From Rouxiella sp. WC2420 (lineage in GTDB: Bacteria > Pseudomonadota > Gammaproteobacteria > Enterobacterales > Enterobacteriaceae), in assembly GCF_041200025.1 (NCBI RefSeq), contig NZ_CP165628.1, forward strand, positions 62,001 through 126,000: a stretch of 64,000 nucleotides of DNA, written 5' to 3'. Below the pieces are notes generated by a model. That model saw nothing but the letters and a program-made list of their open reading frames with translations. It searched no databases and was not told the origin of the DNA. The translations under genes and the position numbers were made by a program. Shown piece after piece: positions 3,212-56,680 of this stretch (positions are counted from its first letter, which is position 1; the number at the start of each line of letters is the position of its first letter).

Positions 3212-6200
3212 TTATTCCTCGATAATCAACAGTGTCTGGCCAGCCTGCACCTGCCCGCCCGGTTGGCGAGACAGGCTCTTCACCGTGCCGCTGACAGGGG
3301 CAGAAATCGGGATCTCCATCTTCATGGATTCGAGTATTCCCAGCGTTTGGCCCTGCGTCACTTTATCGCCGGGTTTAATCAGCCATTGCCAGACACTGCC
3401 TGCAACCTGGCTATCTACACCGTAACAACCTGCGGGTATTGCCAGCTCATCCTCCGTTAAAGAAGGCTGCAAGCTGCTGTCGTAGGTAAATTGACCCTCC
3501 GCCCGCCAGCGCGCCAGCTCTTGATCAAATGCCAGTTGGCGCTGTTGCGAAAACGCCTCTATTTCCTGTGCCTGCGCCGCAAGATCCTGCTGATACTGGT
3601 CGAGGCGGAATGTCCCCTCCTCGACGCGCAACGGATAATTGCCGTAGGGGAAGGCTGAACGAATAGTTTTCAGCTGGTCGGCACTAACCGGATAAAAACG
3701 GATTTGGTCGAAGAAACGCAGTAGCCACGGTTTTACAAAGGCCGATGTCTGGCGGTCGCGGTTCCACATTTGCAGCGTTCGGCCCACAAACTGATAACCT
3801 CCCGGGCCTTCCATACCATAGACACACAGGTAAGCGCCGCCGATGCCGACCGAGTTTTCTGCCGTCCAGGTGCGAGCCGGATTGTACTTGGTGGTCACCA
3901 GGCGATGGCGCGGGTCCAACGGCGTGGCAACGGGCGCGCCCAGATAAACATCACCCAGCCCCATGACCAGATAACGGGCGTTGAAGACCGTGTCTTTGAC
4001 CTGCTCAATGCTGCTCAAGCCATTAATTCGACGGATAAATTCGATATTACTCGGGCACCACGGCGCGCCGGGCCGCACGGACTGGGTATATTTTTCGATT
4101 GCCTTGCGGCAGGCGTCGTCGTCCCAGCTTAGCGGCAGCCAAACGGTGCGCGATGGCACTTCGGCCTGTTGTAAATCGCCCAGTGAAGCTTCTGCTTGCT
4201 GCAAATGGGCGATTAATTGCTCGCGCGGACACAGCAGGCTGTCGAAATGAATTTGCAGCGATCGAATCCCCGGCGTGAGTTCCTGCATGCCCGGTAATGG
4301 ATGATTTTCCAGCCATTGCATCAGCGCGTGGGCACGAAAACGCAGCGCGATATCCAGGATCGGATCGCCGTATTCCACCAAAATAAATCGATCGCCTGCG
4401 GCGAGATAAGCCACTGACGGCAGCGCGCCTTGCTGCGCACGCTGCCACAGAACTGGATTTTGCAAAATTGTCGCGATCCCAGCCTGCGGCTGGGAATGCA
4501 GCGTTGAGAGTTCCAACTCAGCTTCACGAGACAGTTGGTCGGCATCTTGCAGTGAAACCGGTACAAAACGGATCTTGTCACCTGACTTGAGCTGCCCGAG
4601 TATCCACAGGTCCGCATTGATAACCGTAGCGGGGCAGACAAAACCGCCGAGCGAAGGCCCGTCGGGGCCGAGAATTACCGGCATATCGCCAGTGAAATCG
4701 ACAGTACCAAAGGCATAGGCATTGTCGTGAATATTCGAAGGATGCATTCCTGCTTCACCGCCGTCGCTGCGCGCCCATTCAGGTTTAGGGCCGATCAAAC
4801 GGATACCAGTGCGGCTGGAATTATAATGTACCTGCCAGACAGCTTCGAAAAATTGCTCGATATCTTGCTCGGTGAAAAATTTCGGCGCGCCCTGCGGGCC
4901 ATAAATGACCCGCAGGGCGCGCACCTCTTGCCACTCTGGCAACAGCGATGCCGGCAGGCTCTGCTCGGCCCTTGCGACGGGAGCCACAAGATGCAACACG
5001 TCACCGCTGCGCAATTGTCGGCCTGCATGTCCGCCAAATTTCCCTAAGGTGAAAGTGCTGCGGCTGCCGAGGTACTCTGGGCAATCGATGCCGCCCGCCA
5101 ACAGTAAATAGCTGCGGCAGCCTTTACCGTCTATCTGCCCAAGGCTCAGGGTTTGACCCGCCGACACATTACAGACTTGCCACATCGGCAGCGGTTGATT
5201 ATCAAGACGGACATCAATTGCCGCGCCACTAATGACGATCGCGCAGTCCTGATTAAAACGCAGTGTCGGGCCGCGCAACGTAATTTCCAATCCGGCAGCC
5301 TGTTCATCGTTGCCAAGCAGGCGATTGCCGAGACGGAAGGAACGGCTGTCAAACGGGCCAGATGGCGGGACGCCGACGTGCCAATAGCCGCGGCGGCCGG
5401 TGGCATCCTGAATGCTGGTCAGCGTGCCCGGCGCGATCACGTCCAAGGTCGCGGGCTGATACGTAACACATCCCAGCGTTGCGGTGATAACTTTTCCCTC
5501 GCGCACAGCCGGTTGATTGAGCAAATGGCGCAGATAATCCAGATTGGTTTCAATGCCGTACAGCGAGGTGTTTCGTAAAGTCTGGCTCAGCGCATCCAGC
5601 GCCTGATGTCGATTGGCGGCGTGAATAATGACTTTTGCCAGCATTGGATCGTAGAAAGGCGAAACCTCACTGCCGCTGTCTATCCAGCTATCGATGCGCA
5701 GCTCGGCATCTGCAGGGGCCGAAGGGAAACTGACATGACTCAGCAGACCGGCGCAAGGCTGGAACTGTTTGGCCGGGTCTTCGGCATAGAGTCGCACTTG
5801 AATCGCATGACCCTGCGGAGCACTCACTGCCAGCGACGAAAGTGGCGGTAAACATCCGGCCCCAAGTTGCACCATCCAACTGACAATATCGACGCCGTAG
5901 ACCATCTCGGTTACGCCGTGCTCGACCTGCAACCGGGTGTTAACTTCAAGAAAATAAAACTGCTCGCTGCTGACATCGTAAACATATTCCACCGTGCCTG
6001 CGCTGCGATAGTTTACCGCTTTGCCGAGACGAACGGCAGTTTGCGCCAGCGCCTCGCGTATCGGCTGGGGCAGGTTTGGTGCCGGAGTTTCTTCAATCAC
6101 TTTCTGATTACGCCGTTGGGCCGAGCAGTCTCTCTCGCCCAGGGCAATCACGTTGCCTTCGCCGTCACCAAAAATTTGTACCTCGATATGGCGTGCATCA

Positions 6201-6808
6201 GCGACGAATTTTTCTAAAAAAACGCCATCGTCGGCGAAATTATTGCCCGCAAGACGTTTTACGCGAGTGAATGCTTCGCTGAGGATCTCTGCGTCATCGC
6301 AACGCTGCATGCCGATACCGCCTCCGCCCGCAGTGCTTTTCAGCATCACCGGATAACCGATTTCCATGGCAGAAACCAACGCCTGCTCGAGATCTCGCAG
6401 CAAACCGCTGCCCGGCAGTAGCGGCACTTGATTATCCTGCGCCAGCTGCCGCGCGCTGTGCTTGAGACCAAAGGCCGCCATCTGCTGCGGCGTCGGGCCG
6501 AGAAAAATGACTTCCTGCTGGCGGCAGCGCTCAACGAAGCCGGCATTCTCCGAAAGAAATCCATAACCGGGGTGAATAGCTTCGGCACCGCACTGCTTGG
6601 CGATAGCGAATAATTTGTCCTGATCGAGATAGGTTTCGCGCACACTGCCATCACCCAGACAGAAGGCCTCATCGGCCTGACGAACGTGCAGCGAATGCCT
6701 GTCGGCTTCGGCGTAAACCGCCACGGCGCGCACGCCCATCTGTTTCAAGGTACGGATGATGCGCACCGCAATGGCGCCGCGATTGGCAATCAAAACGCAT
6801 GTAAACAT
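3212..6808 (-). CDS. Biotin-dependent guanidine/urea carboxylase
   Basis: 1198 residues from the ATG at 6808; the frame is open 26 codons further upstream, but MFTCVLIANRGAIAVRIIRT is the canonical N-terminus. Domain order: biotin carboxylase (~1-450, KSTAGGGGIGM glycine loop, EVNTRLQVEH), carboxyltransferase halves of KipA and KipI type (~455-1080, GTLTSIQDATGRRGYWHVG and VGIGGAYLCVYGMEGPGGYQ), and biotinyl carrier domain at the end with ESMKM, whose lysine carries biotin. Urea carboxylases make allophanate from urea; homologues next to DUF1989 pairs and ykkC riboswitches prefer guanidine and make carboxyguanidine. Here it is the last gene of such an operon, so guanidine is the likely substrate. 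A full paralogue lies at 51134-54823. No allophanate hydrolase is in this operon. Confidence 0.9.
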   Translation of the reverse strand: MFTCVLIANRGAIAVRIIRTLKQMGVRAVAVYAEADRHSLHVRQADEAFCLGDGSVRETYLDQDKLFAIAKQCGAEAIHPGYGFLSENAGFVERCRQQEVIFLGPTPQQMAAFGLKHSARQLAQDNQVPLLPGSGLLRDLEQALVSAMEIGYPVMLKSTAGGGGIGMQRCDDAEILSEAFTRVKRLAGNNFADDGVFLEKFVADARHIEVQIFGDGEGNVIALGERDCSAQRRNQKVIEETPAPNLPQPIREALAQTAVRLGKAVNYRSAGTVEYVYDVSSEQFYFLEVNTRLQVEHGVTEMVYGVDIVSWMVQLGAGCLPPLSSLAVSAPQGHAIQVRLYAEDPAKQFQPCAGLLSHVSFPSAPADAELRIDSWIDSGSEVSPFYDPMLAKVIIHAANRHQALDALSQTLRNTSLYGIETNLDYLRHLLNQPAVREGKVITATLGCVTYQPATLDVIAPGTLTSIQDATGRRGYWHVGVPPSGPFDSRSFRLGNRLLGNDEQAAGLEITLRGPTLRFNQDCAIVISGAAIDVRLDNQPLPMWQVCNVSAGQTLSLGQIDGKGCRSYLLLAGGIDCPEYLGSRSTFTLGKFGGHAGRQLRSGDVLHLVAPVARAEQSLPASLLPEWQEVRALRVIYGPQGAPKFFTEQDIEQFFEAVWQVHYNSSRTGIRLIGPKPEWARSDGGEAGMHPSNIHDNAYAFGTVDFTGDMPVILGPDGPSLGGFVCPATVINADLWILGQLKSGDKIRFVPVSLQDADQLSREAELELSTLHSQPQAGIATILQNPVLWQRAQQGALPSVAYLAAGDRFILVEYGDPILDIALRFRAHALMQWLENHPLPGMQELTPGIRSLQIHFDSLLCPREQLIAHLQQAEASLGDLQQAEVPSRTVWLPLSWDDDACRKAIEKYTQSVRPGAPWCPSNIEFIRRINGLSSIEQVKDTVFNARYLVMGLGDVYLGAPVATPLDPRHRLVTTKYNPARTWTAENSVGIGGAYLCVYGMEGPGGYQFVGRTLQMWNRDRQTSAFVKPWLLRFFDQIRFYPVSADQLKTIRSAFPYGNYPLRVEEGTFRLDQYQQDLAAQAQEIEAFSQQRQLAFDQELARWRAEGQFTYDSSLQPSLTEDELAIPAGCYGVDSQVAGSVWQWLIKPGDKVTQGQTLGILESMKMEIPISAPVSGTVKSLSRQPGGQVQAGQTLLIIEE

Positions 6809-6904: not shown

Positions 6905-7540
6905 TTACCAGACGGCAACTTCAATCGGCGTCGGATTATAGCCATTGCAAGGATTGTTAAGCTGCGGACAGTTGGAGATCAGCACCAAGATGTTCATTTT
7001 CGCCACCAACTCGACGTATTTCCCCGGTGCAGAAAGCCCGTCGGCAAAAGTCAATCCGCCCTGCGCGGTTACCGGTACATTCATGAAAAAGTTGATGTTA
7101 TGGGTAATATCTTGCTTGGAGAGGCCATACTGCGGATGTGCGGCAATCGCCAGCATCCAACTGTCACGGCAGGCGTGCATATGGCGCTTTTCCAGCGAGT
7201 AACGCACGGTGTTGCTTTCGGTGGAGCAAGCCCCGCCCAGCGTGTCATGGCGGCCACAGGTGTCGGCGACAATCTCCAGCATTGGACGATCATCATTGGA
7301 GCGCAGCACGGTTCCAGCGGTCAGAAACACATTCTTTTGCCCGCGCAGGGTATCGGTCATGCTGTAGCGTTCGCCAATATCATCGGCGTTGAAAAACAGC
7401 GTATCGGCAGCCTGATTCCCCTCGCTGTCGACGATACGCAATGTTTGCCCGGCTTCGATGCGATGCAGCCAGTAATCACCGGCACCAACCTGCGCGCGGT
7501 AAACTGCATCTTTAATAAGGCGTGAGCTGGTCTGGATCAT
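6905..7540 (-). CDS. DUF1989 protein, carboxyguanidine deiminase subunit (UAAP2 type)
   Basis: 211 residues, DUF1989 family, formerly called urea amidolyase-associated protein 2. Recognisable blocks are [34 protein letters not shown], and the Cys/His cluster [12 protein letters not shown] that likely binds a metal, followed by a conserved [10 protein letters not shown]. Pairs of these proteins are established to deiminate carboxyguanidine to allophanate downstream of guanidine carboxylase. The start ATG overlaps the stop of the upstream DUF1989 gene by 4 bases (ATGA), so the two are translationally coupled and probably form a hetero-oligomer. A 96-bp gap separates it from the carboxylase gene. 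Which subunit corresponds to CgdA or CgdB I cannot assign securely. Confidence 0.87.
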
Positions 7541-8277
7541 CGTTGTGCCTCCTGGCAGCAGGCGGTGTGGTGATAGAGGGCATTATTGGCATTGCCGCGA
7601 CGGTTTTCCTCTTGGCTCAGACAGTGTGCCGGCAGCGGCGCAGTATTGGCGAGCAACTCAACGGTGACCGCTGCGCGGGGATAACTGTCTGATTCAGTTA
7701 ACGGATGCGGGCAAGTATGCATAATCACCAGCGTATCCATGGCGAAACGCAGCGTGATGCTGGCTGTTGGCTTTGGACAAGCATCCAGCGCCAGATTGCC
7801 CTCATCATCGACTGTAACTTTGGAAAACCAGTTGACGCAGGCGGCCATATCTCGCTTGCCTAGCCCGTATTTTGCCAGTTCGACTAAAAAGCTGTCGTAG
7901 CCATTTTGATGACGCTCGTTGCGGGCTTGCTGATAGTTCAAAGCGCCAAAACGCTGTTCGGCCAAGCAGGCATTCATCGTGCCACAGACGGTGTCGTGCC
8001 AGCCAAAAGTGTCCTGTTCAATGCCGCAAAAGATACGTCCCATGTCGGAATACAGGCAATGGCCTGCGGTGAGTCTGAAGGTGTGCTGACATTTAAGAGT
8101 GTCGGGCGCGTTATATCTTTCAAGCAGGTTTTCTGGATTGTAAAAAAGCATGCCAAGATTGGCGTTGCCTTCGACGTCGGTCAGGCGTAGCGCCGATCCT
8201 GCTTTAACCCGCATTGACCAGTGTGACCCGCCGGGGAGCAGGGTCTGATATAAGCTGTCGCTGGATTCGTTCATCAT
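7537..8277 (-). CDS. DUF1989 protein, carboxyguanidine deiminase subunit (UAAP1 type)
   Basis: 246 residues, DUF1989, formerly urea amidolyase-associated protein 1. It shows [20 protein letters not shown], the [14 protein letters not shown] block, and a Cys/His pattern FGWHDTVCG comparable to its partner gene. I use ATG at 8277 (a second ATG is at 8274): AGAGAGGA precedes it closely, whereas the frame is open to 8328 without a ribosome site. It overlaps the downstream DUF1989 gene by 4 bases and follows the ATPase gene after 22 bases. Its job is inferred as half of the enzyme that converts carboxyguanidine to allophanate plus ammonia in the cytoplasm. Confidence 0.87.
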
Positions 8278-8299: not shown

Positions 8300-9094
8300 T
8301 CAAGCCACGCGCGCGGTGGAATAAACACGCTCGCTAATTTGCTGTTGGGTCAAGGCCGAGGGGCCTGCGGCAGCCTTTCGGTCTAAGGGGATGTCATAGG
8401 TTATGCTCGCGCCCCAAGCGTCGGGAGCCTGTGGATCGTGGCGAATTTTGTCGAACACCCACAGGCGCGAGCCGAGTGAAAACCCCTCTTTCAGGTCGTG
8501 AGTAATCATAAAAATTGTCAACTGATGCTCTTGCCACAAGGTGGTAATCAACTGGTGCATGTCTTTTCGGATACCTGGGTCCAGCGCGCCAAAAGGTTCG
8601 TCGAGCAGCAAAATGCGTGGCTTCTTGGTCAGAGCCTGTGCTAGCGCCAAACGCTGCTGCATGCCGCCAGAAAGCTGGTGCGGATACTTATCCAGTGCGT
8701 GTCCCAGCCCAACCTGTGCAAGCATCTCGGTTGCACGTTCGGCAATCGCCCGCCGCTTGCTGCCCCACACCCGGCCTAACCAGCGCGCCTGCACAAACTC
8801 CTCTCCGAGCATCACGTTTTGCAGCGCTGTCAGGTGTGGAAATACCGAATAGCGCTGAAACACCACACCGCGATCCTCGCCCGGCTCTTGTGGGATGGGT
8901 TTGCCGTCGAGCAAAAGTTCGCCTTTGCTAGGACTTTCTGTGCCAAGCATCATCTTCAAAAAAGTGGTTTTCCCACAGCCGGATGCGCCAACGATCGACA
9001 CAAACTCGCCTTCCTGCACCTCGGCATTGACCCGTTCCAGCACCACCTGATTGCCGTAGTGTTTTTCCAGATTGCGCATACTCAGTAAGCTCAT
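8300..9094 (-). CDS. ABC transporter ATPase, guanidine operon (nitrate/taurine type)
   Basis: 264 residues. Walker A GASGCGKTT (~37-45), signature LSGGMQQR, Walker B ILLLDEPFGALD and a switch histidine in MITHD are all intact. It belongs to the NrtD/SsuB/TauB-type ATPases that energise uptake of small nitrogen or sulfur compounds from the periplasm. A ~40-residue C-terminal extension after the D-loop/H-loop region (from about 220) is typical of the transporters associated with urea carboxylase. It lies between the permease gene (19-bp gap) and the DUF1989 pair, inside one minus-strand operon under the guanidine-I riboswitch, which makes guanidine import the most likely role. Confidence 0.9.
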   Translation of the reverse strand: MSLLSMRNLEKHYGNQVVLERVNAEVQEGEFVSIVGASGCGKTTFLKMMLGTESPSKGELLLDGKPIPQEPGEDRGVVFQRYSVFPHLTALQNVMLGEEFVQARWLGRVWGSKRRAIAERATEMLAQVGLGHALDKYPHQLSGGMQQRLALAQALTKKPRILLLDEPFGALDPGIRKDMHQLITTLWQEHQLTIFMITHDLKEGFSLGSRLWVFDKIRHDPQAPDAWGASITYDIPLDRKAAAGPSALTQQQISERVYSTARVA

Positions 9095-9113: not shown

Positions 9114-9926
9114 TCATTTAACGTAATACCACGGCCAGCAGCGGCGGCTAATCAGGCGCAGCAGGGCATCCAGGGCAAAGGCCAGCAGGGTAATCCAGGC
9201 GACGTAGGGCAGAATGACGTCCATCGCCAGATAACGGCGCATCAGGAAGATGCGATAGCCCAGGCCTTCGGTGGCGGCGATTGCTTCTGCGGCGATCAGG
9301 AAAAGCCACGCAGAGCCTAAGGAGAGGCGCACTGCGTCGAGCAGGCGCGGCATCAGCTGTGGCAAAATAATACGCCACAGGATTTGCCCGCTGTGGGCGC
9401 TGAGAGTTTGTGCCTTGATTAGCTGTTCCTGCGGGATCGATTGAACGTGCTGCTGTAAATCGCGGGCGATAAACGGCGTCACGCCCACGGCAATCAGCAC
9501 CACTTTCGACAGCTCCCCCAACCCGAACATAATGAACAGGATTGGCAGCACTGCCAGTGGAGGAATAAGGGCGAACAGCGTCACCAGCGGAGAGATAAGC
9601 GAACGTATAGCAGGCAACGCGCCGCAGAAAATGCCCAGCGCCAACCCGAGAAAAGCGCTGATCAAGATGCCACTGAGCAGGCGAATCAGGCTGGCGTAAG
9701 TGTCGGCCCACAGCAGATATTGGCCGGTGCGCGGGTCAGGCTCGAAGGCGACGCGGTAAAGTGCATCGCCCATTGAACTAAAGCCTGGAAGCAGCTTGTC
9801 GAAAGCATTGACCGACAGACGAGCATCCGACGCCATCAGATACACCAATACCAGCAGCAGCAGGGGCAGCAACCCTAGCAGGCTGCGTGACAGGCGTTGG
9901 GGTTGGTAGTTGATCATTTTGCGCAT
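9114..9926 (-). CDS. ABC transporter permease, guanidine operon
   Basis: 270 residues, BPD-type inner-membrane permease with about six hydrophobic helices (first at ~15-32). The cytoplasmic EAA-like loop near residues 180-205 (PQLMPRLLDAVRLSLGSAW) is the surface that contacts the ATPase. The large family is SsuC/TauC/NrtB. ATG at 9926 is preceded by AAGGAGAG at a good distance. It follows the binding-protein gene after 34 bases and precedes the ATPase gene, completing a classical binding protein-permease-ATPase set. Specificity for guanidine is inferred from the operon and riboswitch only. Confidence 0.9.
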   Translation of the reverse strand: MRKMINYQPQRLSRSLLGLLPLLLLVLVYLMASDARLSVNAFDKLLPGFSSMGDALYRVAFEPDPRTGQYLLWADTYASLIRLLSGILISAFLGLALGIFCGALPAIRSLISPLVTLFALIPPLAVLPILFIMFGLGELSKVVLIAVGVTPFIARDLQQHVQSIPQEQLIKAQTLSAHSGQILWRIILPQLMPRLLDAVRLSLGSAWLFLIAAEAIAATEGLGYRIFLMRRYLAMDVILPYVAWITLLAFALDALLRLISRRCWPWYYVK

Positions 9927-11093: not shown

Positions 11094-11190
11094 GCCTCCC
11101 GGGCTTTTATCCCGCCGTGTAACCGCCAGAGGGCGGTCGGTCACTCTCGGACCAGCCATCTGCGTATTGCAGACCGGAACCCTAGTGACC
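11094..11190 (-). promoter_or_regulatory. Guanidine-I (ykkC) riboswitch aptamer
   Basis: Read on the minus strand, the leader contains, in order, the hallmark conserved blocks of the ykkC guanidine-I aptamer: CTAGGGTTCCGG, then CTGGTCCGAGAG, then ACACGGCGGGATAAAAGCCC followed by GGGAGG. The closing helix P1 is visible: GGTCAC (11190-11185) pairs with GTGACC (11144-11139). The aptamer ends ~70 bases before the binding-protein start codon. Downstream, a hairpin GCGAGAA/TTCTCGC lies at 11073-11089 and CCTCCT (11066-11061) could pair with the aptamer's 3' GGGAGG. No U-run follows, so whether control is by termination or translation is not decided here. Confidence 0.93.
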
Positions 11191-11249
11191 TTATTTCAAA
11201 TTGTATGGCGACACCGGTTTCCCGCTATCGCTCCTGCTGGATAAATACA

Positions 11250-11265
11250 GGCAAGATTCTTGCCA
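11250..11265 (-). promoter_or_regulatory. Candidate sigma-54 promoter of the guanidine operon
   Basis: The minus-strand sequence TGGCAAGAATCTTGCC has GG (-24) and GC (-12) with the exact spacing of the sigma-54 consensus TGGCACN5TTGC. It would start transcription near 11239, about 50 bases before the riboswitch. The same bases also form a perfect 15-bp inverted repeat (GGCAAGA-T-TCTTGCC), so an operator or a hairpin is an alternative reading. Confidence 0.6.
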
Positions 11266-36149: not shown

Positions 36150-36212
36150 CTGATTTTGCTCTTTTGTCTGGCGAATTATCCCTCCAGTAAAGAGGCTTTG
36201 CGGCAAGTAAAA

Positions 36213-36228: not shown

Positions 36229-36248
36229 AATTGACGTGTTACCGAATT

Positions 36249-36264: not shown

Positions 36265-36308
36265 GAAGGGCCTCAACATTTTGAGACCCAGATTGCATTT
36301 TAAGGATG

Positions 36309-41913: not shown

Positions 41914-42175
41914 TTTTAATATTTTAGGCGAAATTTATCCTTATAGAGAATTCTAGGCTCAATGTGCTTAATGGTATGTAATAAATCTCATTTAAGAGGC
42001 TGGATTTATTTTAAATTAAATTAATCTCTATCATTAAATATAGATTTAAATAAATTATTCAGATTTGATTTGTCCTTTGATAAGAATTAAAGCAATCATT
42101 CATCCAGTTTGAATGGGACCCAGTGCATCTCGCTGGTATTTAATTAAATTAAACTTATCAATTAATGAGAATTTT

Positions 42176-45363: not shown

Positions 45364-45385
45364 GATTCTCTCCCTGCGACGCAGT

Positions 45386-46186: not shown

Positions 46187-47259
46187 TGCGCCTTCCTCTT
46201 ACGCAGCAGGCCAATTACCCCCTCTGGCAGGAACAAAGTCACGACGATAAACATTGCGCCCAGAATAAACTGCCAATATTCAGGGATAGCTACAGTGAAC
46301 CAGCTTTTGGCACCGTTAACGATGCCAGCGCCCAGAATGGGGCCAATCAGTGTGCCGCGACCGCCCAGAGCGACCCAAATCGCTGCTTCGATCGAGTTGG
46401 TCGGGGACATTTCGCTGGGATTGATAATGCCAACCTGCGGGACATATAAAGCCCCGGCGAGGCCGCAAATCATCGCCGAGACGGTCCACACGAAAAGTTT
46501 GAAGCCTTTTGGATCGTAACCGCAGAAGATGAGACGGTTCTCGGCATCGCGTACTGCCGTCAAAACGCGGCCATACTTGCTGCGCGCCAGTGCAAAACCC
46601 AAGGCCAGACTGGCAACCAGCAGCAGAACGGTGGTGATAAACAGTCCAACGCGGGTCGAGGTGGCGGTGACTTGAAAACCGAGCAGGGTGGTGAAGCCGG
46701 TAAAGCCATTGTTGCCGCCAAAGCCAGTTTCATTGCGGAAAAACAGCAACATACCGGCGTAAGTCAGCGCCTGGGTCATGATTGAGAAATAGACCCCTTT
46801 TATTTTCGAACGGAAAGCGAAATAGCCGAATACAAAAGCCAACGCGCCGGGCACTAAAACAATCAGACACAAAGCCCAGGCGAAATGCTGGGTTCCGGCC
46901 CAAAACCACGGCAGTTCAGTCCATGACAGGAACGACATAAAGTCTGGCAGGCCGCTGCCTGAGGCCTGGCGCATCAGGTACATCCCCATCGCATAACCGC
47001 CGAGGGCAAAAAACAGTCCGTGGCCGAGAGACAGCAAGCCTGCATAGCCCCAAACCAGATCCAGCGCGATCGCGACGATCGCATAGCACAGGATCTTGCC
47101 CACCAGTGTCAGGGTGTAAGTTGAAATCGATAGAGGATTGGTCTGCGGCAGCAGCGCCAAAAATGGCATGATCAGCAGCGCAATCAGCACCAGTATGCCC
47201 ACGCTTATCGCCACGCGCGGCGCTTTCTGCACGCCGGTAATCGTCAATGGTTGCGTCAT
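46183..47259 (-). CDS. urtC: Urea ABC transporter permease UrtC
   Basis: 358 residues, LivM/UrtC family with about nine to ten hydrophobic helices. Conserved blocks include ALDLVWGYAGLLSLGHGLFF near residue 65, SIMTQALTYAGMLLFFRNE, NNGFTGFT, and the cytoplasmic AVRDAENRLIFCGYDP. It forms the channel with UrtB. The ATG overlaps the urtB stop by one base (TGATG), and its own stop overlaps urtD. All of this speaks for one transcript. Confidence 0.94.
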   Translation of the reverse strand: MTQPLTITGVQKAPRVAISVGILVLIALLIMPFLALLPQTNPLSISTYTLTLVGKILCYAIVAIALDLVWGYAGLLSLGHGLFFALGGYAMGMYLMRQASGSGLPDFMSFLSWTELPWFWAGTQHFAWALCLIVLVPGALAFVFGYFAFRSKIKGVYFSIMTQALTYAGMLLFFRNETGFGGNNGFTGFTTLLGFQVTATSTRVGLFITTVLLLVASLALGFALARSKYGRVLTAVRDAENRLIFCGYDPKGFKLFVWTVSAMICGLAGALYVPQVGIINPSEMSPTNSIEAAIWVALGGRGTLIGPILGAGIVNGAKSWFTVAIPEYWQFILGAMFIVVTLFLPEGVIGLLRKRKAQ

Positions 47260-48872
47260 CAGTCAATCACCCTGCCTTTGAAGGCGAAGAGTCCCTGCGG
47301 ACGTTTTTGGATAAACAGGATGATCAGCGCGAGGATCAGGATTTTGCCCAATACCGCACCGATTTCCGGTTCGAGGATTTTATTGACGATACCCAGTCCA
47401 AACGCCGCGACCACGGTTCCGGCCAGTTGACCGACGCCGCCGAGCACCACCACCAGGAAGGAGTCGATGATGTAACCCTGGCCCAACTCGGGGCCGACGT
47501 TACCCAGCTGCGACAGCGCTACGCCGCCCAGACCGGCAATGCCCGAGCCGAGTCCAAACGCCAGCATGTCGACCTTACCCGTCGGTACGCCGCAGCAGGC
47601 CGCCATTGCGCGATTCTGTGTTACAGCGCGAACATTCATACCGAGACGGGTTTTATTCAACAGTAGCCAGGTCAATGCCAGCACCAGCAATACAAAAACG
47701 ATCACCGCGATTCGGTTGTACGGTAGCACCAGATTCGGCAGCAGTTGAATACCGCCAGACAGCCAGTTCGGGTTGGCAACCTCGACGTTTTGCGCGCCAA
47801 AAAGCACCCGCACGCCTTGAATCAGAATCAGGCTAATACCCCACGTTGCCAGCAAAGTTTCCAGCGGACGACCATATAGATGGCGGATCACCGTGCGCTC
47901 GAGCAGCATGCCGATGCCAGCCGTAATAAAGAACGCCACCGGCAGCGCCACCAGCGGGTATATCGCCAGCAGCCCGGGCGCGTAATGTTGAAACAGCGAC
48001 TGCACCATGTAGGTGGAATAGGAGCCAAGCATCAGCATCTCGCCGTGCGCCATATTGATAACGCCGAGCAGGCCGTAGGTAATTGCCAGACCCAATGCTG
48101 CCAGCAGCAGAATCGATCCCAGTGAAAGTCCGGTAAAAGCCTGCCCCAGCCAGTCGCCAATCATCAGGCGATGCTGCACGGCCTTCAGGCTTGCCAACGC
48201 GGCGGTGCGCACCGTGGCATCAGCTTCAATTTTAGGGTCGGTCAGCGGCTGTAAATGCCCCTGAGTATCCGGGTCCGACGACGCGCCGAGCAGCTCGACA
48301 GCGTGCAGGCGAACCTGAGGATTCGGGTCAGCGAGCTGTAAATTGGCCAGCGCAATGCTTAACGCTTCGTGTACTACGCTGTCTTGTTCCAGCGCCAAAC
48401 GCTTGGTAAGCAGCGGTAATTGGTCGGCCTGTGCTTCGCGCTGCAAGGTTTTGGCAGCCTGCAAACGCACTGCGCTGTCTTTGCTGACCAGACGATGGGC
48501 AGAGAGGGCATTGTTGATCAGATTTCGTATCCGATTGTTAAGCCACACAGGTTTGACATCACCCTGCGGTTTTGCGGTCCCTTCCAGCGGTGTCAGTACA
48601 TTGCCCTGCTGAACAAACGCGTGGTGCGCTTCATCAATCACGACATCTTCCTGCTTTAATGCCTCTAACAGTGGCAACCGTTCTGGCTGCGGATCGCTTG
48701 CCCACTGCTGAAGCAGCGTAGCCTGCTCCGAGCGGCTGGCTGCTGCAAAATCGTCAGCAGGACCGGCCTTGGCCCACAGCGGCAGGCAGCAAAGCAGGAA
48801 AGTGAGGGTTCGCATGCTCGGCCTGGGGCTGAGTGGCAAACGTAGGAGGCGCAAGAGTTTCATCATGGTCAT
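47259..48872 (-). CDS. urtB: Urea ABC transporter permease UrtB (with long periplasmic N-terminal domain)
   Basis: About 537 residues. The N-terminus has a signal-like hydrophobic segment (RTLTFLLCCLPLWAKAGPAD) and a ~200-residue Ala/Leu/Gln-rich region with HEAT-like helical repeats. From ~230 on there is a LivH-type permease with about eight helices (GLLGVINMAHGEMLMLGSYS, AACCGVPTGKVDMLAFGLGS). The long N-terminal domain distinguishes UrtB from branched-chain amino acid permeases. Several in-frame starts exist (48875 GTG, 48872, 48866 and 48863 ATG, or 48815 directly before the signal segment), and the choice is not firm. A strong hairpin separates it from urtA. Confidence 0.92.
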   Translation of the reverse strand: MTMMKLLRLLRLPLSPRPSMRTLTFLLCCLPLWAKAGPADDFAAASRSEQATLLQQWASDPQPERLPLLEALKQEDVVIDEAHHAFVQQGNVLTPLEGTAKPQGDVKPVWLNNRIRNLINNALSAHRLVSKDSAVRLQAAKTLQREAQADQLPLLTKRLALEQDSVVHEALSIALANLQLADPNPQVRLHAVELLGASSDPDTQGHLQPLTDPKIEADATVRTAALASLKAVQHRLMIGDWLGQAFTGLSLGSILLLAALGLAITYGLLGVINMAHGEMLMLGSYSTYMVQSLFQHYAPGLLAIYPLVALPVAFFITAGIGMLLERTVIRHLYGRPLETLLATWGISLILIQGVRVLFGAQNVEVANPNWLSGGIQLLPNLVLPYNRIAVIVFVLLVLALTWLLLNKTRLGMNVRAVTQNRAMAACCGVPTGKVDMLAFGLGSGIAGLGGVALSQLGNVGPELGQGYIIDSFLVVVLGGVGQLAGTVVAAFGLGIVNKILEPEIGAVLGKILILALIILFIQKRPQGLFAFKGRVID

Positions 48873-48902
48873 CACCGCTTATAAAAATCACTAATAAACT
48901 TA

Positions 48903-50401: not shown

Positions 50402-51121
50402 TCACGATGACGGGGTATCGACATCGTTTTCTGGTCGCGCCTGGTGCAGCATGTGTAAAGTAATTTTGCGCACCTCGGCTTTACTGACGGCAATGTGATC
50501 TTGTAGTTGGCGCTGTGCCTCCTGGGTTTGGCGTTGCATGATGGCGAGCAAGATGCTCGCGTGTTCGCTGTAGGTCGCGTTGACGCGCGCGTCCTTGGTA
50601 AAGTCCAGCCGCCGGATAATGCGGATCTTCTCGGTCAGGTCGCGATGGATTTTTGCCATCTCGCCGTTGCCCGCCGCCGCTACCAGCGCCATGTGAAATT
50701 CTTCGTCGAAACGTGAAACGATTTGACCGTCTTCCAGCCTTGGCTCGTCTATCCAGAAACTCTTGAGAGGCAGCAGAGCTTCGGGCGTTTCTGCCTGAGC
50801 GCAAAGGCGTTTTACCGCCTCGAGTTCCAGCACGATGCGCAGGTCATAAAGCTGTTCGAAATACTCGAAATCGAACGGGCGCACCTGCCAGCCGCTGCGG
50901 AAAAACACTTCCACGTAACCCTCGCGCTCAAGCCAGAACAGCGCCTGACGCACCGGCGTGCGGCTGACTTCCATGCGTTCTGCGACTTCGTTTTCGCTAA
51001 AGCGGTCGCCCGGCAGCATGCGAAAACTAAAAATATCGTCTTTCAGCTGTAGATAAATCCGCTCTGCCAATCCTTCCGGGCGGGCCTTGCTGCGTCCGCT
51101 TCGTGCGCCGGTAAGCTGCAT
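50402..51121 (-). CDS. GntR-family (FCD/FadR-type) regulator of the urea operon
   Basis: 239 residues. N-terminal winged helix (~18-85; LAERIYLQLKDDIFSFRMLP, FSENEVAERMEVSRTPVRQA) and C-terminal FCD ligand-binding domain (~95-225; metal-site pattern RFDEEFHMALVAAAGNGEMA with later conserved His residues). It is encoded 12 bases after the urea carboxylase gene and 190 bp before urtA, inside the operon, as for similar regulators of urea amidolyase. A 30-bp palindrome in front of atzF contains TTGTGTACTA, a fit to the FadR-type TNGTNNACNA pattern, so it probably represses the operon and itself. Ligand perhaps urea, allophanate or a related compound. Confidence 0.9.
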   Translation of the reverse strand: MQLTGARSGRSKARPEGLAERIYLQLKDDIFSFRMLPGDRFSENEVAERMEVSRTPVRQALFWLEREGYVEVFFRSGWQVRPFDFEYFEQLYDLRIVLELEAVKRLCAQAETPEALLPLKSFWIDEPRLEDGQIVSRFDEEFHMALVAAAGNGEMAKIHRDLTEKIRIIRRLDFTKDARVNATYSEHASILLAIMQRQTQEAQRQLQDHIAVSKAEVRKITLHMLHQARPENDVDTPSS

Positions 51122-51133: not shown

Positions 51134-54100
51134 TTAAACGTTGTCGGACTCGTTTTTACCGATGGCAACTTTACCGATCCCATCTTTATCGATGCTGTCT
51201 TTATCGATCCATAGAAGCGCATCGCCGGGACCCACCGGACGGCCCTGCTGGCAAGCGATCTTGAGCACTGTGCCTGCACAAGGAGCATTAACAGACAGCT
51301 CCATTTTCATTGCCTCAACCACAATCAGCGGCTGACCCGCCTCAACGACTTGGCCGGGTTCAACCAGAATTTTCCAGATGTTGCCGTTCAAATCAGCGCT
51401 CACCAGCTGGCCCGGCTGATCGGCGAGGTCTTCAACTGGTTGCGCACCGTTGACGGCAGCATCAACCGCCGCGCTTTCGTGCGCCTGCCAATGAGCCACT
51501 TCACTGATAAATGCGCTTTGCTGACGCTGGCGAAAATCGGCGATATCTTCAGCATTATCGGCAAGAAAACGGGTATATTCGGCGAAATCAAACTCAGTCT
51601 GCTCGATGCGAACCTGAGCGCGCCCTTCGCGGAAAGCGTCGCGCTGCTCTTCAAGCTCGGCTTCGGTGACCTGATAGAAACGTACCTGGTCGAAGAAGTG
51701 CAACAGCCACGGTTCGCCCTGTTCAAACTGTTCGTTTTTAAGGAATTTATTCCATATTGGCAGTGTACGGCCCACCAGCTGATAGCCTCCCGGTGAGTCC
51801 ATGCCGTAAATGCACATATACATGCCGCCAATACCTACCGTGCCCTCGGCGGTATGGGTTCGGGCCGGGTTATATTTCGAGCTCAGCAGGCGATGACGTG
51901 GATCAATCGGCACCGCGCAAGGTGCGCCGAGGTATACATCCCCCAACCCAAGGATGAGATAGCTGGCATTGAACAGGATGTCTTTGACTTCTTCACGGCT
52001 GGCTAAACCATTGGTGCGCTGAATGAAATCAACGTTGTTTGGCAGCCACGGCGCCTCGGCGCGCACGGTTTGCTGATAACGCTCGACGGCGGCCAGTGTG
52101 GCGGCGTCTTCAAAAGCCATCGGCATGTGTATGATACGGGTCGGGATTTTCAGTTGGCTGACGTCGGCCAGCTGCAGCTCCAACGCCAGCAGGTGTTTCA
52201 GCAACGCTGACTGATGCAGCACGCGGCTGTCGTAGCGAACCTGCAACGAGCGCACGCCCGGTGAAAGTTCTTCAATTCCCGGCTCGGCGGCTTCGCGAAT
52301 CGCCTTCATTAACAGATAAATACGCAGACGCAGCGCCAAATCCAGCACGTTATCGCCGTACTCGATCAGTACATAGCCATCACCGGCCTGACGATAAACC
52401 ACGCAAGGGCGGTCTTCGCTGGCTGGCAGCTCGGCTAAAATAGTCGCAGAAGCCGTCTTGGCGGGCAGTAAAGACGGTACCTGCATCTCCATCGCTTCAA
52501 TCGGCATTAACGAGTCGATAGTGCCTTGTTGCGCCATTTCCAGCGCCTGCGCCTGTTCGAAGCTGATCGGATGGAAGCGAATACGATCGCCTGGTTTCAC
52601 CTGACCGACCTTCCACAGCTCGGCCTTGGCAATAGTCACGGGACAAACGAAACCGCCGAGACTCGGTCCGTCACGGGTCAGGATCACCGGGAAATCGCCG
52701 GTAAAGTTGATTGCGCCAATCGCGTATTCGCAGTCGTGAACGTTGGAAGGATGCAAGCCCGCTTCGCCGCCGTCCAGCCGCGCCCACTGCGGTTTTGGAC
52801 CGGTAAGACGCACGCCGAGGCGGTTTGAGTTGTAATGCACCTGCCATTCAGAATCAAAGAACGTGTCGATTGACTCTTTGGTGAAGAAATCTGGTGCGCC
52901 GTGCGGGCCGTAAAGCACGCCGATACTCCAGTCATCGCCGTAAGCCGGGACGATATGAGCGGCAGCGGCCTGCGGTAAATCTACCGGTGCCGGGGTGGTG
53001 CAGGCGGCAAGCTCTGGCTGCGAAACGGTCAACATATCGGCGACACGTAAAGTGCGACCGGCATGACCGCCAAACTGGCCGAGAGCAAAGGTCGAGCGGC
53101 TGCCCAAATACACCGGCACGTCGAACCCGTTGCGCACGGCGAGATAGGTACGGCAACCGCTGGTGGCGCGGCCCAGGGTTAATACTTGTCCGGCTTTAAT
53201 ATCAATCGGCTGCCAGTAGGCAACCTCGTTGCCGTCCAGATCGGCGGGACACGCCGCGCCGGTCAGTGCAATAGTGGCATCGCAGTGGAAACGCAAAGTC
53301 GGGCCTTGCAGAGTAAATTCCAGACCTGCGGCATCAAGGTGATTACCTACGATGCGGTTGGCGAGGCGGAAGGCAAAATCGTCCATCGGACCCGAAGGCG
53401 GCACGCCAATATCCCAGTAGCCGAGGCGGCCCGGGTAATCCTGAATGCTGCTGTAGGTACCGGGGGAGATCACTTCTACAGCCTGTGGTTTGTACACGAA
53501 GCTGTCGAGCATGCGAGTCCACATTTCGCCCTGATGGAACAGCGGAGTCGCCACTACCTGACGCAGATAATCGATATTGCTGGCAATGCCGTGCAAACGC
53601 GTGGCCGCCAGTGCCTGAGACATTTTTTCCAACGCCTGCTCACGGTTGTCGCCGTAAACAATCAGCTTGGCGATCATCGGGTCATAAAACGCCGAGACTT
53701 CACTGCCGGTAGAAACCCAACCATCGACGCGAACATCTTCCGGGAAGAATACTTCGGTCAATACACCCGGACTTGGCAGGAAGTTTTTCAGCGGATCCTC
53801 AGCGTAGATACGCACTTCAATCGATGCGCCTTTCGGCGGCTGCTGCATACGCGGCCAGTCCAGCGGCTCATCGGCGGCGACGCGCAGCATGCATTCGATC
53901 AGGTCCAGACCGGTCACCATCTCGGTCACCGGATGCTCAACCTGCAAGCGGGTATTGACCTCGAGGAAATAAAACTCGTCGCGCGCGGCATCGTAGATGT
54001 ATTCCACTGTACCGGCGCTGCGATAGTTTACTGATTCTCCCAGCTTGACCGCTGAACGATGCAGGGCTTCGCGAGTCGCCTGAGGCAGATTCGGCGCGGG

Positions 54101-54823
54101 AGTTTCTTCGACCACCTTCTGGTTGCGGCGCTGCAAAGAGCAGTCACGCTCGCCGAGAGCAACCACGTTGCCCTTGCCGTCGCCAAAAATCTGTACTTCC
54201 ACGTGACGGGCGCGATCGACGAAACGCTCGAGGAACACACCGGCGTCACGGAAAAACTGCTCGCCGAGGCGTTTTACGCTGTCCCATGCGGCACGCAACG
54301 CGGCTTCATCGTCACAGCGGGTTAAACCAATCCCGCCACCGCCTGCGGTGCTTTTCAACATAATCGGATAGCCGATATTCGCCGCAGCGGTGACGGCTTC
54401 TTCAATACTGTCTAACAGGGCTGTGCCGGGCGTCATCGGCACATCGGCAATGGCTGCAAGTTCACGGGCGCGGTGCTTGAGGCCGAATTCACGGATTTGA
54501 TGCGCAGTCGGGCCGATAAACGCGATCCCCGCGGCTTCACAGGCATCGGCGAATTCGGCGCTTTCGGATAAAAAACCGTAGCCCGGATAAATCGCCTGCG
54601 CGCCGGTTTCTTTGGCGGCGGCCAAAATTTTGTCAATCAGCAGGTAGCTTTCACTGGCTTTTTCACCGCCGAGTGCGACGGCAATATCGGCATCGGTAAC
54701 GTGTGGCGCATTGCTGTCGGCATTGGAATAAACCGCTACGCTGGTCACACCCAGACGTTTCAAGGTACGAATGGCGCGGCAGGCAATTTCACCCCGGTTG
54801 GCAATCAGGACAGTATTGAACAT
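51134..54823 (-). CDS. uca: Urea carboxylase (biotin-dependent), second paralogue
   Basis: 1229 residues. Biotin carboxylase (~1-450; [23 protein letters not shown]), KipA/KipI-like carboxyltransferase (~455-1090; [53 protein letters not shown]) and biotinyl domain (~1130-1205) with EAMKM. The carboxyltransferase blocks look closer to those of fungal urea amidolyase (NNVDF) than the left paralogue does (SNIEF). Encoded directly after allophanate hydrolase (12-bp gap) and with a urea importer, so true urea carboxylation to allophanate is most likely. The last ~25 residues are an odd pentapeptide-repeat tail ([20 protein letters not shown]). Confidence 0.93.
   Translation of the reverse strand: [1229 protein letters not shown]
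51146..51205. repeat. Four imperfect 15-bp tandem repeats at the 3' end of uca
   Basis: Units GATGGCAACTTTACC, GATCCCATCTTTATC and GATGCTGTCTTTATC, plus a degenerate GGACTCGTTTTTACC. They are in frame and encode the IDKDx/IGKxx tail on the minus strand, beyond the biotinyl domain. Confidence 0.7.
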
Positions 54824-54835: not shown

Positions 54836-56680
54836 TCAGGCGTTTTTGGCAGCGGTTGATTTCAGATGCTCGACATAGCTTCTCCAGCCGCCGAACGAGG
54901 TCACATCAGTGGCGCTGGCAATCGCCCACGGCTCGCAGATAAAGCCTTTCACGCTGCGACCATCGGCCAGTTGCAGGGTGCCAATGCCCAGCGGAGCAGG
55001 GATTTCAGCCACAAATTCGCCAAAGCGCGCCAGTGGAATGTCCCACAGTTCAACAATAATGCTGCTACCGCCTTCGGCCTTCACCAGGCCCGGTTTCGGC
55101 GGCTGGGTGTTGGCGAGGGCATAGAGTTTGTAATCGTTGGCAGTGCGGGTTTGCTCGACGCGAACGGCGTTGCGAGTCGTCAACTGGAAATTCAGCGGCA
55201 TGCCGGTAAGATGTGCGCCAACTACGGCAACGCGGACGTGATCGCCGCTTGCTGCGACAGGGCCGGTCATCGCGTTGTCGGCATTGAGGGTTTTGCCGGT
55301 CGCGCCTAAAGGCAGAGAGAGGCTGCGCTGCCACTGGCGGCCAAAAGCGGCGAGGGCTCCATCGTGCCAGGCTGGGGCAATAAGGGTGATGCCAGATGGC
55401 AAACCGTCATCGCGAAGGGTAGCGGGCAGTGCCAGCGCACTCAGGTCAGCCAGATTAGTGAAATTGGTATAGGTGCCAAACTGCGAGTTAAACAGCACCG
55501 GTTCCTGTGCCATCTCTTTGAGGGTGCGGATGGTCGGCGAGGTCGGCACCACCAGCGCATCGAAACCTTCCAGCGCAAGATTGATTTGGCGGGACAGCTC
55601 GGCGCGCAGATATTCTGCTTTCCACGCATCGACAGCGGAATATTTCAGCCCATTAGCGACGATGCCGCGCACTACCGGGTCCATCACCTCTGGCGTTTCT
55701 TCAAAAATTTTGCCTACCGCCACGGTGCGCTCTGCGACCCATGCACCGTAATACAGCTGCTCGGCCAACTCTTTAAATGCCGTAAAGTCGATTTTCACCA
55801 GACTGACACCGTTGCTGACCAGCTTATCCAGCGCCTGTTGGAAGGCTTTTTCAGATTCACGATCGCCAAAAAATTCCAGCGTATCCGGTATGGCGAAGCG
55901 CGGCTGGGAAGACATTGCCGCCGGAGCCGTGTGCGGATTGGCCCGAGAATAGGCGTCTTGTGGATCGTAACCACCGGCCGCTGTGGCGACCTGATAGGCA
56001 TCGGCAACGGTGAGGGCGAAAATGGAGACGGCGTCATTCAGGCGGCAGGCAGGAACTACGCCGCGATTCGACAGCCAGCCTTTGGTTGGTTTGAGGCCGA
56101 CGATATTATTGAAACCGGCTGGCACGCGACCAGAACCGGCGGTGTCGGTGCCAAGTGAGAAGGCGACCAGACCGCGTGCCAGTACCGAGGCAGAGCCTGA
56201 GCTGGATCCACCGCTAACGTATTCAGGATTAAAGGTATTTTTTACCGCGCCGTGAGGGGAGCGGGTGCCGACGAGACCAGTAGCGAACTGATCGAGATTG
56301 GTTTTGCCAATCACTACCGCGCCTTTGGCCTTGAGGTTGGCAACTACAGCAGCATCTCGCTCGGCAATATATTCGAAAGCCGGGCAGGCGGCGGTGGTCG
56401 GCCAGCCCGCGACGTCGATATTATCTTTTACTGCAAACGGTACGCCAAACAGCGGCAGCGCGGCGAGAGATCCGCCCGACTGATCGCGCAAGGTTTCAAG
56501 TTGGGCAATTTGCTCTTCAAGCTGGGCGGGATTGGCGCGATAAAGCCAGGCATTATCATCGGCGCTTAAGCTGCCAAGGACGATACCCAATGAACTGCGC
56601 AGGCTGTCCGGCGCGCTTTGATAATGGTGTTGCCAATCACGTAACTGAAAACCGGTGTAAGGAGTCGATACTGAGGCCAT
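54836..56680 (-). CDS. atzF: Allophanate hydrolase
   Basis: 614 residues, full length for AtzF. The N-terminal amidase-signature domain (~1-440) has the Ser-cisSer-Lys triad: K85 (FAVKDNIDV), S159 (SGGSSSGSAS) and S183 (GTDTAGSGRVPAG). The C-terminal domain (~470-614) is the family's extra domain, with the conserved GAHLTGMPLNFQL and GTLQLADGRSVKGFICEP. It hydrolyses allophanate to CO2 and two ammonia. First gene of the atzF-uca-gntR-urtABCDE operon and the only allophanate hydrolase in the window, so it probably also serves the guanidine operon. Its Shine-Dalgarno is weak and lies beside the GntR palindrome. Confidence 0.94.
   Translation of the reverse strand: MASVSTPYTGFQLRDWQHHYQSAPDSLRSSLGIVLGSLSADDNAWLYRANPAQLEEQIAQLETLRDQSGGSLAALPLFGVPFAVKDNIDVAGWPTTAACPAFEYIAERDAAVVANLKAKGAVVIGKTNLDQFATGLVGTRSPHGAVKNTFNPEYVSGGSSSGSASVLARGLVAFSLGTDTAGSGRVPAGFNNIVGLKPTKGWLSNRGVVPACRLNDAVSIFALTVADAYQVATAAGGYDPQDAYSRANPHTAPAAMSSQPRFAIPDTLEFFGDRESEKAFQQALDKLVSNGVSLVKIDFTAFKELAEQLYYGAWVAERTVAVGKIFEETPEVMDPVVRGIVANGLKYSAVDAWKAEYLRAELSRQINLALEGFDALVVPTSPTIRTLKEMAQEPVLFNSQFGTYTNFTNLADLSALALPATLRDDGLPSGITLIAPAWHDGALAAFGRQWQRSLSLPLGATGKTLNADNAMTGPVAASGDHVRVAVVGAHLTGMPLNFQLTTRNAVRVEQTRTANDYKLYALANTQPPKPGLVKAEGGSSIIVELWDIPLARFGEFVAEIPAPLGIGTLQLADGRSVKGFICEPWAIASATDVTSFGGWRSYVEHLKSTAAKNA

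What the first reader, a model, noticed from the sequence alone, without database searches (positions are those of the whole stretch)
3212..56680. Two complete urea/guanidine carboxylase systems with a single shared allophanate hydrolase
The sequence shows two full-length biotin-dependent carboxylases (3212-6808 and 51134-54823), each in an operon with a different importer (NMT1-type ABC versus UrtABCDE). Only the right operon has an allophanate hydrolase and only the left has the DUF1989 pair and guanidine riboswitch. Established: guanidine carboxylase plus DUF1989 proteins yield allophanate. Inference: the left operon handles guanidine and the right urea, and both converge on AtzF, so the right operon must be expressed for guanidine to be used as a nitrogen source.
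Basis: partly seen in the sequence, partly recalled or inferred. Interest (0 to 1): 0.8.

Follow-up and report, generated by a model that had tools for sequence, protein, structure and literature searches.

The report
Guanidine and urea pathways sharing AtzF
This bacterium carries one gene set for eating guanidine and another for eating urea; the guanidine set lacks its last enzyme and very probably borrows the one encoded beside the urea genes, as many related bacteria seem to do.

Summary
The left carboxylase carries the published guanidine-carboxylase residue (Asp704), the right one the urea-carboxylase residue (Asn706). The genome holds one allophanate hydrolase (AtzF, right operon) and no urease above the family cut-off. 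New is the comparative evidence that AtzF is shared. Of 62 same-family genomes with a guanidine carboxylase, 13 have AtzF beside it and no urea carboxylase; 42 have it beside a urea carboxylase; 6 have it alone; one incomplete genome has none. A tree needs at least seven linkage switches. In two branches the urea carboxylase is gone but AtzF kept; in one a urea-type AtzF sits beside the guanidine carboxylase. Both operons have conserved sigma54-type sites, so AtzF is probably made under nitrogen limitation, not only with urea. A palindrome at the atzF start is probably the operator of the operon's GntR regulator. The enzymes are known; the shared layout is a new variant. No enzyme or growth assay was done.

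The parts
11250..11265 (-). sigma54-type promoter site TGGCAAGAATCTTGCC of the guanidine operon
   Evidence: 9 of 10 consensus letters; not rare by itself (6 such sites on both strands of the window), but 38 of 44 distinct leaders of related operons reach 9 of 10 against a shuffle mean of 0.4 (max 2), and 36 of 44 best sites lie at -81 to -86 from the riboswitch core
11094..11196 (-). guanidine-I riboswitch
   Evidence: RF00442, 98.9 bits, gathering 63; the only one found in the genome
9961..11025 (-). ABC transporter substrate-binding protein of the guanidine operon (ORF opens at 11049; likely ATG at 11025)
   Evidence: TIGR03427, 504.6 bits, cut-off 333.9
9114..9926 (-). ABC permease
   Evidence: TauC/SsuC-like, below those models' cut-offs
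8300..9094 (-). ABC ATPase
   Evidence: ABC ATPase models, below their cut-offs in the rows shown
7537..8277 (-). DUF1989 protein UAAP1, presumed carboxyguanidine deiminase subunit (ORF opens at 8328)
   Evidence: TIGR03425, 284.9 bits, cut-off 206; PF09347
6905..7540 (-). DUF1989 protein UAAP2, presumed other carboxyguanidine deiminase subunit
   Evidence: TIGR03424, 329.8 bits, cut-off 284.7; PF09347
   Evidence: RF01068, 31.8 bits against gathering 32, E 4.6e-5 on the local stretch. Above gathering at the same place in 7 of 14 related GC loci scanned (L026, L140, L141, L142, L185, L188, L189; not in L016, L017, L019, L020, L035, L180, L181)
3212..6808 (-). guanidine carboxylase (P0001), Asp704
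   Evidence: TIGR02712 1816 bits; Asp at K. lactis 1330
56721..56736 (-). sigma54 promoter site TGGCACGCCGCTTGCT of the urea operon
   Evidence: exact consensus, the only exact site in the window, 0.10 expected, 8 of 100 shuffles had one; 39 of 42 distinct UC-linked atzF leaders have 9 of 10 letters or more, shuffle mean 0.5 (max 2), GC-linked atzF 0 of 15
56693..56708 (-). palindrome ATCTTGTGTACTAGAT, candidate operator of the GntR regulator, about at the predicted transcription start
   Evidence: the only exact match to ATCTNGTNNACNAGAT in the 5.28-Mb genome; with one mismatch 12 places against 5 for the reversed pattern; 10-12 of 12 letters upstream of 35 of 35 UC-linked or lone atzF loci, at most 8 of 12 upstream of 13 of 13 GC-linked ones
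54836..56680 (-). allophanate hydrolase AtzF (P0003)
   Evidence: TIGR02713 812.9 bits, AH_C domain; single copy
51134..54823 (-). urea carboxylase (P0002), Asn706
   Evidence: TIGR02712 1965.7 bits; Asn at K. lactis 1330
50402..51121 (-). GntR-family regulator of the operon
   Evidence: stays beside atzF where UC is missing in L136, L137, L138, L182
48944..50212 (-). UrtA
   Evidence: TIGR03407, 594.6 bits, cut-off 492.75
47259..48875 (-). UrtB
   Evidence: TIGR03409, 430 bits, cut-off 250
46183..47259 (-). UrtC
   Evidence: TIGR03408, 441 bits, cut-off 296
45386..46186 (-). UrtD
   Evidence: TIGR03411, 378 bits, cut-off 304
44665..45408 (-). UrtE
   Evidence: TIGR03410, 347 bits, cut-off 286

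Best explanation
The left operon takes up guanidine, carboxylates it (Asp-type carboxylase) and deiminates carboxyguanidine to allophanate with the DUF1989 pair. The right operon takes up urea and carboxylates it to allophanate (Asn-type carboxylase). Both feed the single AtzF, the first gene of the right operon, which turns allophanate into ammonia and CO2. Both operons are transcribed from sigma54-type promoters, presumably activated by NtrC under nitrogen limitation. Guanidine then specifically opens the left operon through two riboswitches (I at its start, II before the carboxylase gene). The GntR regulator probably holds back the right operon at the palindrome over its start site until an inducer appears. 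AtzF is thus a shared, nitrogen-controlled last step. Shown: gene content, key residues, riboswitch matches, single AtzF, conserved promoter and palindrome sequences, and the comparative pattern. Inferred: enzyme activities in this strain, promoter use, NtrC, and the GntR action and its inducer.
For: Key residue: Asp in 43 of 43 left-type and Asn in 34 of 34 right-type rows (one contig and the window's UC occur twice), and Asp in 71 of 71 left-type rows, some genomes being in both sets; criterion from PMC11410670 (passage). One AtzF in the genome; urease best hit 20.9 bits against a cut-off of 680. Linkage: of 62 same-family genomes with GC, 13 have AtzF beside GC and a single carboxylase match, 42 have AtzF beside UC, 6 a lone AtzF, 1 incomplete genome none. 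Outside the family 24 of 24 GC genomes have AtzF beside GC, one of them also a UC operon with its own AtzF. The GC tree needs at least 7 switches of linkage. AtzF kept without UC in Dickeya/Prodigiosinella and in G360; urea-type AtzF beside GC in G413, G629 and MAG bin_314. sigma54-type sites at both operons.
Against: No assay shows substrate preference or growth. The guanidine-II hit is 0.2 bits below the gathering score, and 7 of 14 related GC loci scanned have none above it. With the -24 GG and -12 GC both required, 11 of 41 left leaders scanned lack a site in place, ten of them Pantoea/Erwinia-type or similar; the three lone-atzF leaders of Dickeya and Prodigiosinella also lack the -12 GC. 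No clear NtrC site at the window's right promoter, only weak ones at the left, no shuffle control. In G652 both atzF and UC are split into two frames while GC is open, and G629's GC holds an internal stop. The lone AtzF of Dickeya lies beside genes that may be a ureide-type cluster and might serve those.
Confidence: 0.85

Rival explanations
1. The left operon does not depend on AtzF: allophanate decays to urea or is split by another amidase.
For: Allophanate is chemically unstable (recalled). Other amidase-like stretches are encoded, one of them above the AtzE-family cut-off.
Against: Urea formed that way would be re-carboxylated to allophanate, since no urease above cut-off is found. None of the other amidase stretches reaches an allophanate hydrolase cut-off. 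61 of the 62 GC genomes of the family have an AtzF match; the exception is 84% complete.
Confidence: 0.1
2. Both carboxylases act on both substrates, so the operons are partly redundant rather than split between guanidine and urea.
For: Carboxylases of this kind were first annotated as urea carboxylases and later found to prefer guanidine (review PMC12186494, passages).
Against: Asp/Asn split at the deciding residue without exception in the rows examined, separate importers, the DUF1989 pair only on the left, guanidine riboswitch matches only on the left.
Confidence: 0.1
3. AtzF is kept unlinked, and kept after UC loss, for another source of allophanate (ureide, biuret or triazine breakdown), not for guanidine.
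For: In Dickeya and Prodigiosinella the lone atzF-gntR lies beside permease-, racemase-, deacetylase- and amidase-like genes (names by eye except the amidase, which matches AtzF at 30%).
Against: In G413, G629 and MAG bin_314 a urea-type AtzF sits directly beside the guanidine carboxylase; linkage tracks UC across the 62 genomes.
Confidence: 0.1

Closest known systems
Guanidine carboxylase operon of Vreelandella boliviensis (PMC12508155; abstract and passages)
   Same: Guanidine-I riboswitch at the operon start, internal guanidine-II riboswitch before gca, ABC transporter, cgdA/B, gca
   Different: There atzF is in the operon, with mgdH and mgdL between gca and atzF; here atzF is in the urea operon and gca is followed by a Kdo hydroxylase gene
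Guanidine operons of Raoultella terrigena, Erwinia rhapontici, Klebsiella michiganensis (review PMC12186494; passages)
   Same: Importer and deiminase genes behind guanidine-I, carboxylase behind guanidine-II
   Different: There allophanate hydrolase is also found under guanidine-II; here it is missing from the operon
Urea carboxylase plus allophanate hydrolase (urea amidolyase pathway) with UrtABCDE
   Same: Asn-type carboxylase, AtzF and Urt in one operon
   Different: AtzF also serves a second, guanidine-derived supply of allophanate (inferred)
NtrC regulon of Burkholderia cenocepacia H111 (PMC5491218; passages)
   Same: A gene named urea carboxylase (BCAS0272) falls in an ntrC mutant (log2 -6.0); a 'urea carboxylase-related' ABC protein is also listed, its value printed as na(m)
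   Different: No riboswitch or shared AtzF in the passages seen; species and gene layout differ

Membership tests
Guanidine carboxylase pathway (left operon) | Asp at K. lactis 1584 and Asp at K. lactis 1330 in the carboxylase | tested here: met
   Asp953 and Asp704; criterion PMC11410670 (passage)
Guanidine carboxylase pathway (left operon) | Two DUF1989 proteins (carboxyguanidine deiminase subunits) | tested here: met
   TIGR03425 and TIGR03424 above cut-offs, PF09347 in both; not placed in the CgdA/CgdB tree that the paper used
Guanidine carboxylase pathway (left operon) | Guanidine riboswitch control | tested here: met
   Guanidine-I 98.9 bits; guanidine-II 31.8 bits, 0.2 below gathering. 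Sequence match only; ligand response not tested
Guanidine carboxylase pathway (left operon) | Allophanate hydrolase in the operon (present in the published operons seen) | tested here: not met
   KdoO follows at 2177-3076; the only AtzF is 48 kb from the carboxylase start
Urea carboxylase / allophanate hydrolase pathway (right operon) | Asn at K. lactis 1330 in the carboxylase | tested here: met
   Asn706
Urea carboxylase / allophanate hydrolase pathway (right operon) | Adjacent allophanate hydrolase with AH_C domain and a urea importer | tested here: met
sigma54-dependent promoters at both operons | -24 GG / -12 GC consensus, conserved in place | tested here: met
   Window sites have both; conservation, with losses of the -12 GC in 11 of 41 left leaders and 3 lone atzF leaders
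sigma54-dependent promoters at both operons | Upstream NtrC (enhancer) sites | tested here: inconclusive
   None at the window's right promoter, two at 7 of 8 letters at the left; 8 of 8 in some relatives; no shuffle control
Functional dependence of guanidine use on this AtzF | Loss of growth on guanidine without atzF | not testable with these tools
   needs a mutant

The most novel reading that the evidence does not exclude
The GntR regulator senses allophanate, the intermediate shared by both pathways, and represses atzF at the palindrome until allophanate appears, so guanidine breakdown in the left operon itself induces the missing enzyme in the right one. This would explain why gntR and the palindrome stay with atzF in species that lack the urea carboxylase.
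Probability: 0.3. Interest if true: 0.6.

Novelty: new variant of a known kind. Interest (0 to 1): 0.5.

Why it matters
Operon-by-operon annotation would call the guanidine operons of these genomes incomplete. The linkage pattern suggests that the last enzyme is shared with the urea pathway, that this arose repeatedly, and that there are natural cases (no urea carboxylase, AtzF kept) which predict growth on guanidine but not on urea by this route. It also joins a general nitrogen signal (sigma54) with a specific one (two riboswitches) and offers a testable candidate regulator for allophanate.

Tried and rejected
A second allophanate hydrolase in the genome was sought and not found. The matched stretches of the six weaker hits (not their whole genes) were scanned: two exceed another amidase model's cut-off (AtzE; PRK07056), three score best for other amidase models below cut-off, and the 157-residue one has no family at the threshold used; two of them match an allophanate hydrolase subfamily model at 209 and 220 bits, cut-off 487. 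A guanidine riboswitch on the right operon was sought and not found (whole genome). An NtrC site scan was inconclusive. The left sigma54 site also scores as a terminator-like hairpin; I reject that because relatives keep the promoter letters but mostly not the palindrome and the upstream gene is divergent. Fold of the guanidine-I expression platform: strong alternative hairpin (z -2.6) without a U-run, so the mode of control is open. No structure prediction was run. Urease was searched in the own genome only.

Literature: searches for guanidine+riboswitch+NtrC (2 papers, unrelated by their listings), allophanate hydrolase+guanidine+sigma54 (0), guanidine riboswitch+sigma54 (0), urea carboxylase+guanidine+Kluyveromyces (0) and searches showed no report of a shared AtzF in the listings. 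Passages only were seen of PMC12186494, PMC11410670, PMC5491218, PMC10991766 (nothing that bears on this) and PMC12508155. Two pathway papers, looked up by DOIs recalled from memory, are not held, so prior mention cannot be excluded.

Corrections to my own working: one search used a column one off for the key residue of P0001 and its count is void; redid it (Asp704). In one search L139 repeats L046 and L106 repeats the window's UC. One search does not require the -24 GG and -12 GC, the stricter scans do, hence their different counts. L045 has two equal best sites (-109 and -85). My notebook entry after one search gives the palindrome tally as 36 of 36 and 12 of 12; one search shows 35 of 35 and 13 of 13. 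The palindrome tally is not deduplicated (L073 and L089 are the same stretch).

Rows left out: identical leaders were counted once, L044 (nearly the window's strain) was left out, L047 failed the riboswitch motif filter (8 of 10 at -79), and L046 and L053-L055 were not used (L046 and L054 hold only the carboxylase's C-terminal part; L053 and L055 are not GC-type). In one search, 11 of 80 AtzF rows were dropped as identical, and of the 11 family AtzF of the usual GC-linked type only two (G516, G387) are in the tree; G547's AtzF is not. In one search, 11 of the 24 GC genomes outside the family were used, G515 was not. The match list was capped: partial GC genes could hide in it; G515 was counted as a GC genome only because its UC and AtzF coordinates equal those of G251 (L020's genome). 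L038 could not be searched.
Full report
What is there. On the minus strand the left operon reads sigma54-type site (11265-11250), guanidine-I riboswitch (11196-11094), substrate-binding protein, permease, ATPase, two DUF1989 proteins, guanidine-II riboswitch (6884-6833), carboxylase (6808-3212). The next gene is a Kdo hydroxylase (2177-3076). The right operon reads sigma54 site (56736-56721), palindrome (56708-56693), atzF, carboxylase, gntR, urtABCDE.

Substrates. A published rule separates guanidine from urea carboxylases by Asp against Asn at K. lactis position 1330, with Asp at 1584 also required of guanidine carboxylases (PMC11410670, passage; the review PMC12186494 states the Asp/Asn rule). 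Aligned to the solved K. lactis urea amidolyase 5i8i, the left enzyme has Asp704 and the right one Asn706; both have the second Asp. Across fetched rows the residue is Asp in 43 of 43 left-type and Asn in 34 of 34 right-type rows, grouped by locus and not by residue, with the window's pair included and two repeats, and Asp in 71 of 71 left-type rows (some genomes in both sets). These are related sequences and not independent.

One allophanate hydrolase. A whole-genome six-frame search with AtzF finds the window copy and six amidase-like stretches of 30-35% identity. None reaches an allophanate hydrolase cut-off; one is AtzE-family, one PRK07056, both above cut-off. The urease alpha model finds only a 20.9-bit hit, cut-off 680. 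The genome has one guanidine-I riboswitch and one guanidine-II match, both in the left operon. Of 14 related GC loci scanned at the gathering score, all have guanidine-I and 7 also have guanidine-II before the carboxylase.

Linkage survey. In 247 genomes of the order, 32 have a carboxylase of this kind. I count 28 as guanidine type by identity (57% or more to P0001). 24 of these 28, all outside the family of the window's genome, have AtzF beside GC; the 4 inside it (own genome included) have it beside UC instead. In 392 genomes of the family, 62 have a guanidine-type carboxylase (59% or more, counting G515, see Tried and rejected). AtzF search of these 62: 13 linked, each with a single carboxylase match at E 1e-200, hence no UC; 42 with a second, urea-type carboxylase and AtzF beside it (37 by listed coordinates; G556 through its equal coordinates with G247; G616 and G633; G628 and G652); 6 with AtzF and no UC match (G360, G370, G609, G476, G330, G452); 1 without AtzF (G578, 84% complete). 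Outside the family G113 is the one genome with both: AtzF beside GC and a UC operon with its own AtzF. Among named relatives, 33 enterobacterial GC loci show no AtzF within the flank held, and MAG bin_314 (L046) does.

Direction and repetition. A guanidine-carboxylase tree (72 sequences plus the window UC; quick method, SH-aLRT only, several long branches) needs at least 7 changes of the linked/unlinked label, and starred branches force 7. In the AtzF tree a 100/99 branch parts the 17 AtzF of the usual GC-linked type from 52 others: 43 UC-linked, 6 lone and 3 further GC-linked. Those three, from G413, G629 and MAG bin_314 (a 4.6-kb contig, could be an assembly artefact; G629's GC holds an internal stop), join 9 UC-linked and 1 lone AtzF in a fork of 95/89 inside the UC-linked rows; I read this as a urea-type AtzF that moved beside GC. 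The lone AtzF need two changes on the tree. In G360 the operon is atzF-gntR-urtABCDE with UC missing; in Dickeya undicola, D. oryzae and Prodigiosinella atzF-gntR is left without UC or urt beside it. G547, of the same genus handle as G370, G476 and G609, has a whole urea operon, but its AtzF is nearest to that of G568 (80%) and only 66-68% identical to the lone ones, so it may be a separate acquisition.

Control. The exact sigma54 consensus occurs once in the window, with 40 bases between it and atzF (expected 0.10; 8 of 100 shuffles had one or more). With one mismatch allowed the window has fewer sites than shuffles (2 against 3.8), and the left site is one of six sites of 9 or more letters in the window, so the case rests on conservation. 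39 of 42 distinct UC-linked atzF leaders have at least 9 of 10 letters (shuffle mean 0.5, max 2), lone atzF 3 of 6, GC-linked atzF 0 of 15. For the left operon 38 of 44 distinct leaders reach 9 of 10 (shuffle mean 0.4, max 2) and 36 of 44 best sites lie at -81 to -86 from the riboswitch core. If -24 GG and -12 GC are both required, 30 of 41 left leaders keep a site in place and 11 do not; on the right 32 of 35 atzF loci keep one and the three lone ones of Dickeya and Prodigiosinella do not. The palindrome ATCTNGTNNACNAGAT has one exact match in the genome, at the atzF start, and 12 places with one mismatch against 5 for the reversed pattern. It stands upstream of UC-linked and lone atzF (35 of 35 loci at 10-12 of 12 letters) but not of GC-linked atzF (13 of 13 at 8 or fewer). 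That GntR binds it is inferred from their co-occurrence. In Burkholderia cenocepacia a gene named urea carboxylase falls in an ntrC mutant (PMC5491218, passages), which fits nitrogen control of such genes.

Comparison with the known. The closest published operon, of Vreelandella boliviensis, has the same two riboswitches, transporter, cgdA/B and gca but contains atzF (PMC12508155, passages); the enterobacterial operons in the review also have allophanate hydrolase under guanidine-II (PMC12186494, passages). So enzymes, chemistry and riboswitches are known; the variant is a guanidine operon that relies on the AtzF of a sigma54/GntR-controlled urea operon. None of my paper searches listed a report of this, but the main pathway papers are not held.

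Limits. All function is inferred from sequence. Genomes in the survey are related, so raw counts overstate independence; the tree gives at least seven switches, by a quick method. 

Noticed in passing
window 42113-44575 (+): An 820-aa clostripain-family (C11) protein with two C11-like halves; the second half reads DNRKGW and FDNPQMAS where the first has DHGQGW and FDACLMG, so the His and Cys of the catalytic dyad (recalled) seem lost in it.
   Followed up: no
L182 2483-11434: Genome G360 has atzF, gntR and urtABCDE but no urea carboxylase between atzF and gntR; what its urea importer now serves is unknown.
   Followed up: partly
L184 9138-14592: In genome G652 both atzF and the urea carboxylase are split into two frames while its guanidine carboxylase is open; decay or sequencing error.
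   Followed up: partly
L181 6439-10053: The guanidine carboxylase of G629 is interrupted by a stop (1041 + 161 aa) although an AtzF stands behind it.
   Followed up: no
L136, L137, L138: The lone atzF-gntR pair of Dickeya and Prodigiosinella lies beside permease-, racemase-, deacetylase- and amidase-like genes that look like a ureide-type nitrogen cluster (by eye).
   Followed up: no
L139 (MAG bin_314, 4574 bp): A urea-type AtzF directly behind a guanidine carboxylase, followed by a fragment that reads like a sigma54 activator protein (by eye).
   Followed up: partly
window 30539-37511: MFS transporter, isochorismatase-domain protein and BenE-type transporter genes between the two operons, with no visible link to either.
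   Followed up: no
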